64,000 nt of DNA from an unicellular cyanobacterium SU2 (GTDB lineage: Bacteria > Cyanobacteriota > Cyanobacteriia > Cyanobacteriales > Microcystaceae): NCBI GenBank assembly GCA_002110465.1, contig NEED01000049.1, positions 62,001 to 126,000 on the forward strand, written 5' to 3'. The notes under the pieces are model-generated. The model ran no database searches. It was not told the DNA's origin and was given only the letters and a program-made list of their open reading frames with translations. Shown in pieces: positions 41,728 through 51,262 of this stretch (its first letter is position 1; each line of letters begins with the position of its first letter). Position numbers and translations under genes: made by a program.

Positions 41728-41820
41728 AAAAAAAGCGTCACTTTTATGGAAACTTATTCACGAAAGTCACGTCAAGATAAATGTGTGTGAGGAGTAAGAA
41801 CGAAAGACAAAAGCTCTTGG
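41728..41820 (-). ncRNA. yfr1: Candidate Yfr1 small RNA
   Basis: The minus strand carries ACTCCTCACAC (41785-41795), the conserved single-stranded core of cyanobacterial Yfr1, followed by ACATTT. A 9-bp hairpin with one mismatch (CGTGACTTT 41763-41771 / AAAGTGACG 41736-41744) then leads into a seven-T run (41728-41734), i.e. an intrinsic terminator. Yfr1 is ~55-70 nt; this is somewhat longer if the 5' end lies near 41820, and its 5' hairpin is not obvious. Yfr1 regulates outer-membrane porin mRNAs by its CU-rich core. Confidence 0.45.
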
Positions 41821-41856
41821 GGTCGAAACACGGCAAGACTCCCAAGGGTTTTTTTT
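41816..41856 (+). terminator. Strong plus-strand intrinsic terminator
   Basis: CTTGGG-GTC (41816-41824) pairs with GAC-T-CCCAAG (41838-41846), then GG and eight T (41849-41856). No annotated plus-strand gene ends here, so it may end a short plus-strand RNA opposite the Yfr1 candidate, or protect the convergent gene. Confidence 0.6.
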
Positions 41857-41935
41857 CATAATTGAGACTTTGATCATCCCTGAATCTTCCCAAGGTCTGG
41901 GAATAATCGAATTGGGACAATTACTTTAATCATAA

Positions 41936-49402: not shown

Positions 49403-50086
49403 ATGACTCTAGAGCTATTGTCACTGGATAATATACAAGAGATTGCACGTCAATACGGTTACTGGGCAGTGTTTATCGGAATTGCCTTAGAAAACACCGG
49501 AATTCCCATTCCTGGAGAAACCATTACCATTGTGGGAGGGGTTTTAGCTGGGAGTGGAGACTTAAGCTATGGGGTTGTCTTAGGAAGTGCGATCGCCGGA
49601 GCGGTTCTTGGCGATAATTTCGGCTATTGGATTGGTCGGTTAGGGGGTTGGCCATTTTTATTAAAGTTTGGGCGTTTATTTAGAATTCCCCAAGAAAAAT
49701 TAGAGGAAGTTAAGGCACAATTTAGCAATAATGCAGCAAAGGCAGTCTTTTTTGGACGTTTTGTAGCCTTGTTGCGGATTTTTGCTGGGCCGATGGCTGG
49801 AATTGCTAAGATGCCCTATGGTCAATTTTTGCTGTGTAACTTTGGTGGGGCGACGATTTGGGCATTGATTATGGTAACCCTTTCCTTTTTTGTGGGACGG
49901 ATTATTCCCCTACATCAATTAGTCCAGTCTGTAGCTCAATTTAGTATTGTTGCATTGGTTTTATTAATCGCTTCGATGGTCATTCCTCGGTGGTTTGATA
50001 GAAATCAGTGGTTTTCCCCTTTAACAAGCTCACCCTATCACTCAGGACAAAGCAAACTCTCTAAGCAATCAGAAGTCACCAAGTAA
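49403..50086 (+). CDS. DedA-family membrane protein
   Basis: 227 residues. DedA/SNARE-associated fold: YWAVFIGIALENTGIPIPGE with the characteristic E..GIPIPGE re-entrant loop, GAVLGDNFGYWIGRLGG, and FFGRFVALLRIFAGPMAGIA (the (F/Y)xGR...R..G.AG motif). Several transmembrane helices; the tail is polar. DedA proteins are inner-membrane transporters linked to lipid flipping and proton-motive force homeostasis. The gene is followed by the glutamine riboswitch locus but has its own upstream region. Confidence 0.87.
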   Translation: MTLELLSLDNIQEIARQYGYWAVFIGIALENTGIPIPGETITIVGGVLAGSGDLSYGVVLGSAIAGAVLGDNFGYWIGRLGGWPFLLKFGRLFRIPQEKLEEVKAQFSNNAAKAVFFGRFVALLRIFAGPMAGIAKMPYGQFLLCNFGGATIWALIMVTLSFFVGRIIPLHQLVQSVAQFSIVALVLLIASMVIPRWFDRNQWFSPLTSSPYHSGQSKLSKQSEVTK

Positions 50087-50167
50087 AAAGCTTTAACTAT
50101 TAAAGTTTGATTAATTCTTCCCCTATGATTACTAATCTTGAATGATGCTACCGCTAGGATTTTTAGG

Positions 50168-50208
50168 TGAGATTACCCTACTCATCTTTGAAAAAAAGTT
50201 GGTATGCT
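50168..50208 (+). promoter_or_regulatory. Putative promoter region of the riboswitch transcript (weak NtcA-like half site)
   Basis: TATGCT at 50203-50208 is a fair -10 element about 20 bp before the aptamer. TGA-N8-TAC at 50168-50181 keeps one half of the NtcA consensus GTA-N8-TAC. gif genes in Synechocystis are NtcA-repressed, so this is noted, but the site matches poorly. Confidence 0.3.
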
Positions 50209-50223
50209 ATTAAGTAATAGGAT

Positions 50224-50325
50224 AAATCGTTCATCCGCCTGCCTGGTGGACGGAAGTAGGAAGTTCCTGAGATCTTCCGAAGGAACGCGCCTCATTCGAT
50301 AACTCAACGAATTTGAAGGAGGCGA
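50224..50325 (+). promoter_or_regulatory. Glutamine riboswitch (glnA RNA / Downstream-peptide class) with SD-sequestering hairpin
   Basis: The aptamer has the cyanobacterial glnA-motif hallmarks: CGTTC (50228-50232) pairing GAACG (50283-50287), GGACGGAAGTAGG in the junction, and CCGAAGGAACGC closing it. After it, CGCCTC (50288-50293) can pair with GAGGCG (50319-50324), with ATTCG/CGAAT inside. This hides the ribosome site AAGGAGG right before the ATG at 50327. In Synechocystis a glutamine riboswitch of this class turns on translation of GS inactivating factor IF17; the same logic fits here. Motif seen; ligand response inferred. Confidence 0.85.
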
Positions 50326-50326
50326 C

Positions 50327-50488
50327 ATGAAATCTCAAACTCATAATCTTGGTATTCAATCCAAAGAATATTCTACCTCTATTGCAGAGCAATCGCGATT
50401 TCTAATTAGTCAGAATCGCCAAAAGCAGCAAAATCGCCAACTTTCGATGCTATACAGACTAGCCTCAGAAGTGGGAACTGGCTTTTAA
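50327..50488 (+). CDS. Glutamine synthetase inactivating factor (IF7/IF17, Gif family)
   Basis: 53 residues. The C-terminal half, SRFLISQNRQKQQNRQLSML followed by YRLASEVG, is the basic helix of IF7/IF17. These inhibitors bind glutamine synthetase type I through Arg residues, and the N-R-Q-x-S-M-L-x-R core is typical. The N-terminal part is short, so it is IF7-like in size, although riboswitch control is known for the longer IF17 (gifB). When glutamine is high the protein shuts GS down; the riboswitch upstream gives that signal. AAGGAGG 4 nt before ATG. Too short for standard gene length cut-offs. Confidence 0.75.
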   Translation: MKSQTHNLGIQSKEYSTSIAEQSRFLISQNRQKQQNRQLSMLYRLASEVGTGF

Positions 50489-50509
50489 GCGACAATTCTT
50501 AACAATTGT

Positions 50510-50529
50510 GGGTCAACAGTGGTTGACCC
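50510..50529 (+). terminator. Hairpin between the two small genes
   Basis: GGGTCAAC (50510-50517), loop AGTG, GTTGACCC (50522-50529): perfect 8-bp stem 21 bp after the first small gene. No strong U-run, so partial termination or processing giving unequal levels of the two genes is plausible. Confidence 0.55.
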
Positions 50530-50584
50530 CGACTAATTACTTGTCACGGATTTAACCTGAATGCTCATAACAGAAGGAAAGTAA

Positions 50585-50749
50585 ATGATGACTAGCAACA
50601 AGCAACAAGACATTACTCAAATTCATCGGACAAACATGATACGGAGTCTTAACCACCGTTTAGAAGTCGCTAGACAACGGGGAAACTCCCAGTTGATTGA
50701 ACAACTCGAAGCCGAAAGACGTTATTACGGAGATATTATCCCGCGTTAA
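50585..50749 (+). CDS. Small conserved-type helical protein downstream of gif gene (54 aa)
   Basis: ATG 50585 with GAAGGAAA 4-5 nt upstream; a second ATG directly follows. 54 residues: polar N-terminus, then a charged amphipathic helix RSLNHRLEVARQRGNSQLIE, continuing QLEAERRYYGD. The L-x-H-R-L-E...GN..L...LE.ER pattern looks like a small recurring cyanobacterial family, but I cannot name it. It lies 96 bp after the GS inactivating factor, likely the same transcript through an intervening hairpin. A role in nitrogen control is suggested only by position. Confidence 0.6.
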   Translation: MMTSNKQQDITQIHRTNMIRSLNHRLEVARQRGNSQLIEQLEAERRYYGDIIPR

Positions 50750-50756
50750 CTCAAGA

Positions 50757-50791
50757 AATCCCACTCCAAGTCTTGAATTTGGGGTGGGATT
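50757..50791 (+). terminator. Terminator after the small-gene pair, convergent with ssb
   Basis: AATCCCAC (50757-50764) pairs with GTGGGATT (50784-50791), extended inward by CC/GG. Starts 8 bp after the stop at 50749 and 19 bp before the ssb stop at 50810, so it serves both directions. Confidence 0.6.
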
Positions 50792-50809
50792 ATAGTATTC
50801 TCTCAACCT

Positions 50810-51262
50810 TTAAAAAGGAATGGGATCTTCTTCCCCAGAAGAGTCGGTTGGAGTAGAAGTGGGAACCGGTTGGGTTGATGGGGGATAAGCAGGGGATTGA
50901 TAAGAATCCATTGAAACAACATTATCCCCTGCAGCAGAAGTCCCTGGGGTAGTTGGATAATTATTGAGGGGATAAATGCGAGAAGCGACTAATTCAGCCC
51001 GTTTTTCCTTAAATCCTTCAGGACGATCAAAGGTACTCATTGAAAGACGACCTTCAATAATTAGGCGATCGCCTTGTTGATAACTTTCTTGCATTTGGGT
51101 TGCTAAACCGCCCCATCCGACAACTTTTAAAGTTGAAGTAGAGGCTTCTGTCCGTCGCCCTTCAAACTCCACTAACATTTGGGCAATGGGGGTTTGATTG
51201 TCTGGGGTATAACGTAATTCTGGAGGACGAATTACCGTGGCCATCAAAACACAACTATTCAT
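50810..51262 (-). CDS. ssb: Single-stranded DNA-binding protein
   Basis: 150 residues. OB-fold: MNSCVLMATVIRPPELRYTP, MLVEFEGRR, LKVVGWGGLATQMQESYQQG, RLIIEGRLSMSTFDRPEGFK. A Pro/Ser/Thr-rich linker follows, then the acidic tip EEDPIPF that recruits replication and repair proteins. N-terminus and length are typical of cyanobacterial SSB. It coats ssDNA in replication, repair and recombination. Confidence 0.85.
   Translation of the reverse strand: MNSCVLMATVIRPPELRYTPDNQTPIAQMLVEFEGRRTEASTSTLKVVGWGGLATQMQESYQQGDRLIIEGRLSMSTFDRPEGFKEKRAELVASRIYPLNNYPTTPGTSAAGDNVVSMDSYQSPAYPPSTQPVPTSTPTDSSGEEDPIPF

What the first reader, a model, noticed from the sequence alone, without database searches (positions are those of the whole stretch)
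50168..50791. Glutamine riboswitch controlling a GS inactivating factor and a second small protein
A full glnA-class aptamer, an SD-hiding hairpin, a Gif-family inhibitor, then a hairpin and an unknown 54-residue protein form a compact nitrogen-control unit. The second protein, being under the same riboswitch, may be a new part of GS regulation.
Basis: partly seen in the sequence, partly recalled or inferred. Interest (0 to 1): 0.7.

Follow-up and report, generated by a model that had tools for sequence, protein, structure and literature searches.

The report
Glutamine riboswitch over gif–pirA gene pair
A cyanobacterial RNA switch of the kind that senses glutamine sits in front of two tiny genes, a short relative of the proteins that shut off glutamine synthetase and a PirA protein that restrains arginine synthesis, so one sensor may brake both nitrogen uptake and nitrogen storage.

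Summary
In detail: a type 1 glutamine riboswitch (RF01739, 52.7 bits), an SD-hiding hairpin, a short Gif-like ORF, a hairpin and a 54-aa ORF. The interpretation needs correcting. The 54-aa protein is not unknown: it is PirA (NF050139, 64.1 bits, cut-off 50), known as a PII-binding regulator of arginine synthesis. The Gif-like protein is a C-terminally short IF7 relative, below its family cut-off. The middle hairpin is a palindrome found at 10 places in the genome.

Riboswitch–short IF–PirA recurs at 10 of 108 riboswitch loci (62 genomes; 7 genera, 3 families); these PirAs form their own clade. Seven other riboswitches precede DUF4278–PirA fusions. No readable paper linked pirA to this riboswitch; Klähn 2018 was not held.

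In the window's genus the three larger genomes keep the pair. The four reduced genomes (two titled diatom endosymbionts, two inferred) show no full-length GifA, DUF4278 or intact PirA; three keep riboswitch plus short IF, under purifying selection. Glutamine response and control of pirA are inferred.

The parts
50203..50208 (+). candidate -10 box (TATGCT), 23 nt before the aptamer
   Evidence: sequence; same place as TATATT in 6 of 6 f8 loci (22 nt before the aptamer); a consensus scan found 0 sigma-70-type sites in 50000-50900, so weak
50226..50291 (+). type 1 glutamine riboswitch aptamer (RF01739); P1 = 50228-50232/50283-50287
   Evidence: 52.7 bits, gathering 35, full length; fold
50288..50324 (+). 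SD-sequestering hairpin; the aptamer's 3' end serves as anti-SD
   Evidence: SD letters follow the anti-SD letters across loci
50316..50322 (+). SD (AAGGAGG) of the first gene
   Evidence: sequence; the GAGGC part is predicted paired with probability 0.98 to 1.0
50327..50488 (+). short IF-like protein, 53 aa (gif-like)
   Evidence: NF052599 E 2.7e-7, 30.8 bits, residues 18-50; invariant R24, R37, R44 in 10 relatives; dN/dS 0.13
50510..50529 (.). palindrome GGGTCAAC-AGTG-GTTGACCC, dispersed in this genome
   Evidence: 10 places in the genome, reversed-pattern control 0; not in the gap of L003
50574..50578 (+). SD of pirA (AAGGA)
   Evidence: sequence
50585..50749 (+). PirA, 54 aa (a second start codon lies at 50588)
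   Evidence: NF050139 E 8.2e-18, 64.1 bits, cut-off 50; dN/dS 0.23; clade of riboswitch-linked PirAs
50757..50791 (.). 15-bp hairpin, probable end of the unit, shared with the convergent ssb gene (50810-51262 -)
   Evidence: -22.2 kcal/mol; no T run long enough for the terminator scan

Best explanation
This is a nitrogen-excess brake. When ammonium comes in and glutamine rises, glutamine binds the type 1 aptamer, the SD of the first gene, which otherwise pairs with the aptamer's own 3' end, becomes free, and the short IF is made. The short IF binds glutamine synthetase through its conserved arginines and lowers the enzyme's activity, closing a product-feedback loop. PirA is made from the same mRNA and takes PII away from NAGK, so arginine synthesis is held back at the same time. 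Shown here: aptamer, SD pairing, coding potential, family membership of PirA, conservation of the three-part order, a separate clade of these PirAs. Inferred: glutamine binding and the ON direction (from the tested gifB riboswitch of Synechocystis, as reviewed in PMC6316151), GS inhibition by a protein without the IF7 C-terminal half, transcription as one unit, and that pirA follows the switch (by translational coupling or mRNA stability).
For: Aptamer over the gathering score. SD hairpin in 12 of 12 loci tested. Aptamer end and SD change together: tails GCGCC have GGCG in 62 and GGT[GA] in 2 of 78 (14 neither); tails GCAC[CTA] have 0 and 10 of 15 (5 neither); the remaining 15 tails have 0 and 5 (10 neither). 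Riboswitch–short IF–PirA at 10 of 108 loci, 7 genera, plus three named records L127, L131, L132. Gaps between the two genes of 13 to 42 nt in L006, L003, L004 and L127 leave little room for a promoter. PirA clade of the 13 bicistron rows 95/91. R24, R37, R44 of the short IF keep the spacing of R8, R21, R28 of the genome's own full-length GifA. GifB-type (DUF4278+IF) genes follow 31 of the 108 riboswitches.
Against: P1 and the SD hairpin do not overlap in the predicted fold, so how the ligand opens the hairpin is not explained by secondary structure. In the window the gap is 96 nt and in six f8 loci 108 to 230 nt, so pirA may have its own control there. The short IF falls below the IF7A cut-off, as do the short IFs of 9 other bicistron genomes (23.8 to 39.1 bits). 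The genome also has a full-length GifA and a stand-alone PirA, so the unit may be a secondary layer. No sigma-70-type promoter was found by the scan, and no NtcA-like site lies in the place where 5 of 6 f8 loci have one. The motif classes were chosen after the sequences had been looked at, and loci are related.
Confidence: 0.72

Rival explanations
1. The riboswitch controls only the short IF. pirA is a neighbour with its own promoter in the gap, regulated like stand-alone pirA by NtcA, and the shared place is a loose neighbourhood.
For: 96-nt gap with a separate SD in the window, 108-230 nt gaps in six f8 loci; the platform hides only the first SD; weak -10-like and GT-N10-AC strings lie in some gaps.
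Against: Gaps of 13, 31, 41 and 42 nt elsewhere; the order is kept in 10 of 10 genomes whose riboswitch precedes both, across 3 families; no sigma-70-type promoter in 50000-50900; PirA is joined to the same riboswitch a second way, as DUF4278–PirA fusions at 7 of 108 loci.
Confidence: 0.2
2. The short IF is not a GS inhibitor but a decoy or modulator: it keeps the GS-binding arginines but, lacking the C-terminal half, competes with GifA or targets another partner.
For: The match to IF7A covers only model positions 2-34 of 66; a full-length GifA exists in 10 of 10 bicistron genomes of the survey.
Against: The conserved core is the part that holds the three arginines recalled as needed for GS binding; in three reduced genomes the short IF is the only IF found, which fits a modulator of GifA badly.
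Confidence: 0.2
3. Chance: a spurious aptamer hit next to unrelated small ORFs.
For: Both proteins are very short and the first is below its family cut-off.
Against: Aptamer E 1e-8, PirA E 8e-18, dN/dS well under 1, conserved order in 7 genera.
Confidence: 0.01

Closest known systems
gifB (IF17) type 1 glutamine riboswitch of Synechocystis PCC 6803 (Klähn 2018, known here through the review PMC6316151)
   Same: Same aptamer class, in front of a gene with the IF core; the review reports that glutamine raises IF17 synthesis.
   Different: gifB has a DUF4278 N-terminal part and one gene; here the IF is short, has no DUF4278, and is followed by pirA.
PirA (Ssr0692) of Synechocystis (Bolay 2021, PMC8092223)
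   Same: Over the NF050139 cut-off; 54 against 51 aa.
   Different: The paper's passages describe NtcA repression of pirA; a riboswitch appears only in its reference list. The riboswitch-linked PirAs are a separate clade ending in LEAE[KR]xYY, where the 11 stand-alone PirAs of my tree end in a xAAYL/AADL-type tail.
GifA / IF7
   Same: Core with three arginines in the same spacing.
   Different: No C-terminal half, different N-terminal tail, below the IF7A cut-off.
N-terminally extended PirA of Thermosynechococcus and Synechococcus JA-3-3Ab, called elusive and possibly mis-annotated in Bolay 2021
   Same: Seven loci here have PirA behind an N-terminal DUF4278 under a glutamine riboswitch, which argues that such proteins are real. 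I did not fetch those two strains.
   Different: Fusion instead of two genes.

Membership tests
Type 1 glutamine riboswitch (RF01739) | Covariance-model score over the gathering score | tested here: met
   52.7 against 35 bits, positions 1-53
Type 1 glutamine riboswitch (RF01739) | Lies in the leader of a nitrogen-control gene with an expression platform | tested here: met
   36 nt before an IF-like ORF; SD hairpin
Type 1 glutamine riboswitch (RF01739) | Binds L-glutamine and switches expression | not testable with these tools
   needs in-line probing and reporters
GS inactivating factor IF7A (NF052599) | Score over the curated cut-off of 70 bits | tested here: not met
   30.8 bits; the other short IFs seen also fail
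GS inactivating factor IF7A (NF052599) | Three arginines of the GS-binding core (R8, R21, R28 of IF7; recalled) | tested here: met
   R24, R37, R44 invariant in 10 rows, same spacing as in the genome's GifA
GS inactivating factor IF7A (NF052599) | C-terminal half of IF7 | tested here: not met
   match ends at model position 34 of 66
GS inactivating factor IF7A (NF052599) | Inhibits GlnA | not testable with these tools
   needs an enzyme assay
PirA (NF050139) | Score over the curated cut-off of 50 bits | tested here: met
   64.1 bits, model positions 7-48 of 48
PirA (NF050139) | NtcA-repressed promoter | tested here: inconclusive
   an NtcA-like site 44 nt before the aptamer in 5 of 6 f8 loci; in the window only a one-mismatch string 63 nt before it
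PirA (NF050139) | Binds PII and relieves NAGK of it | not testable with these tools
   needs purified proteins

The most novel reading that the evidence does not exclude
The riboswitch-controlled short IF is the last glutamine synthetase brake of the nitrogen-fixing endosymbionts of rhopalodian diatoms: they have dropped GifA, DUF4278 proteins and PirA but kept this glutamine-sensing unit under purifying selection, so it may hold GS low while fixed nitrogen is passed to the host. Alongside it, glutamine riboswitches of cyanobacteria form a PirA regulon by two routes (bicistron and DUF4278 fusion) that couples nitrogen entry to arginine storage.
Probability: 0.35. Interest if true: 0.8.

Novelty: new variant of a known kind. 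Interest (0 to 1): 0.6.

Why it matters
Glutamine riboswitches are described in the readable literature as controls of GS inactivating factors and DUF4278 proteins. If this unit works as proposed, glutamine itself also sets PirA, and one sensor brakes both entry (GS) and storage (arginine). It offers an account of the N-terminally extended PirA proteins that were called elusive (PMC8092223). In the diatom endosymbionts it points to one gene to test for a question that a 2026 review of their genomes leaves open, the activity of their glutamine synthetase (PMC12903740, passages).

Tried and rejected
Unknown second protein: rejected, it is PirA. Pfam gave nothing over a cut-off for either small protein. 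Solved structures: none for ORF 1; the 13 rows for ORF 2 that I could judge by name are mostly designed helical proteins and I take them as composition matches. Middle hairpin as a regulatory part of the operon: rejected, dispersed palindrome. Intrinsic terminator between the genes: none found on the + strand by the scan. NtcA site in the window: inconclusive. The tree of IF cores groups the 15 bicistron-type rows only weakly (81/59), and GifB rows are not one group; 24 of the 31 GifB-type loci passed the 1e-6 limit set and entered that tree, the other 7 were dropped. The PirA tree rests on 42 columns. Riboswitch rows below the gathering score were not fetched or classified. The classes rest on profiles that I built from a few of the same loci; 37 of 108 loci matched none of the three. 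No structure prediction was run.

Full report
What is there. The window carries a type 1 glutamine riboswitch at 50226-50291 + (RF01739, 52.7 bits, gathering score 35), then an ORF of 53 aa (50327-50488), a palindrome (50510-50529), an ORF of 54 aa (50585-50749) and a 15-bp hairpin (50757-50791). Upstream lies a VTT-domain membrane protein on the same strand and downstream an SSB-family gene on the other strand.

The second protein is PirA. NCBIfam NF050139 gives 64.1 bits against a cut-off of 50. Bolay 2021 (PMC8092223; passages seen) describes PirA as a small protein that competes with NAGK for PII and so restrains arginine synthesis; in Synechocystis it is repressed by NtcA and accumulates after ammonium is added.

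The first protein is a short relative of IF7. It matches NF052599 at 30.8 bits (cut-off 70) over residues 18-50 and model positions 2-34 of 66. Ten aligned relatives share Q22, R24, L26, R31, N36, R37, M41 and R44. The spacing of R24, R37 and R44 equals that of R8, R21 and R28 in the full-length GifA of the same genome; that these three arginines matter for GS binding is recalled, not from a call. I do not file it as IF7A; I say that it probably works like one.

Conservation. I searched 386 genomes of the phylum: RF01739 reached E 0.001 in 72 and the gathering score in 62 (stricter filters, so some weak ones are lost); PirA reached E 0.001 in 116 and its cut-off in 103. I fetched every riboswitch row over the gathering score, 108 in 62 genomes (and the window), and classified the 800 nt downstream with profiles of my own: DUF4278+IF (gifB type) 31; DUF4278 alone 20; short IF then PirA 10; DUF4278+PirA fusion 7; IF alone 3; none of the three 37. 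The ten bicistrons lie in 7 genera of 3 families. Three more turned up in named records (L127 Cyanothece sp. UBA12306, which is G386; L131 and L132, two MAGs). All ten survey genomes with the bicistron also have a stand-alone PirA and a full-length GifA over the cut-off. In a tree of 31 PirA domains the 13 bicistron rows form one group (95/91), apart from 11 stand-alone and 7 fusion rows (only 42 columns).

Expression platform. The aptamer's 3' end (GCGCCUC) pairs with the SD (GAGGCG). Twelve of 12 loci tested fold this way, z -2.35 to -4.93, 0 to 8 of 300 shuffles as good. Across the 108 loci the two sides change together: tail GCGCC with GGCG 62, GGT[GA] 2, neither 14; tail GCAC[CTA] 0, 10, 5; other tails 0, 5, 10 (Fisher p 9e-11 for the first two classes, treating related loci as independent and with motifs chosen after looking; by genus 30 and 2 against 0 and 5). 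The predicted fold holds P1 and the SD hairpin side by side without overlap, so the opening step remains unexplained; the ON direction comes from the review's account of gifB (PMC6316151, section 2.6).

Does pirA follow the switch? Gaps between the genes are 13, 31, 41 and 42 nt in L006, L003, L004 and L127, 96 in the window and 108-230 in six f8 loci. The short gaps argue for one transcript; the long ones allow separate control. pirA has its own SD. Upstream of the aptamer, 6 of 6 f8 loci have TATATT at -22 and 5 of 6 an NtcA-like GTCAAAT[TG][TG]GATAC at -44; the window has neither in that form, and a promoter scan found none.

The genus. Searches covered 7 genomes of the window's genus. G000 (the window), G143 and G386 (4.6-5.2 Mb) have riboswitch–short IF–PirA, full-length GifA, stand-alone PirA and DUF4278: 3 of 3 each. 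Four genomes of 2.5-3.1 Mb have none of GifA over the cut-off, DUF4278 or intact PirA (G147 has a 23.7-bit PirA remnant with a stop), while GlnA is present in 4 of 4 and the riboswitch family in 4 of 4. G183, G268 and G387 keep riboswitch plus short IF; G147 does not. Among the three short IFs dN/dS is 0.11, 0.14 and 0.19 (few sites), and the C-terminus of the G387 copy differs. PMC12903740 (passages), a paper on these genomes, shows no occurrence of pirA, gifA, riboswitch or inactivating factor and says that the GS activity of the endosymbionts would be interesting to know.

Print. Papers holding both 'glutamine riboswitch' and 'pira': 6; 'ssr0692' and 'riboswitch': 4, all among them. The passages seen make no link between pirA and the riboswitch; in PMC9004378 12 of 15 places were shown. 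Klähn 2018 is not held, so an earlier mention there cannot be excluded.

Noticed in passing
L019 1709-1785 and downstream (G000:C22:101216-101292 -): The genome's second glutamine riboswitch precedes a 76-aa small membrane protein. By eye 18 of the 37 unclassified riboswitch loci have a like protein; Pfam and NCBIfam know no family for it.
   Followed up: partly
L005, L013, L014, L015, L016, L017, L099: DUF4278–PirA fusion proteins directly downstream of glutamine riboswitches; two of the seven were checked against Pfam and NCBIfam and pass both cut-offs.
   Followed up: partly
L052, L053, L129 (G183, G268, G387): Reduced, diatom-associated genomes keep riboswitch plus short IF as the only IF found.
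   Followed up: partly
window 50510-50529 and L133-L142: Dispersed palindrome GGGTCAAC-NNNN-GTTGACCC, often flanked by GTAG/CTAC, at 10 places in the genome.
   Followed up: partly
L078 (G170:C2:1066802-1067466): Three glutamine riboswitches in a row, each before a short DUF4278 ORF.
   Followed up: no
window 41781-41860 +: Cyano-1 RNA (RF01701, 54.5 bits, gathering 41).
   Followed up: no
L006 downstream of PirA (G105:C1): The bicistron is followed by a DUF4278 ORF and a further PirA-like ORF.
   Followed up: no
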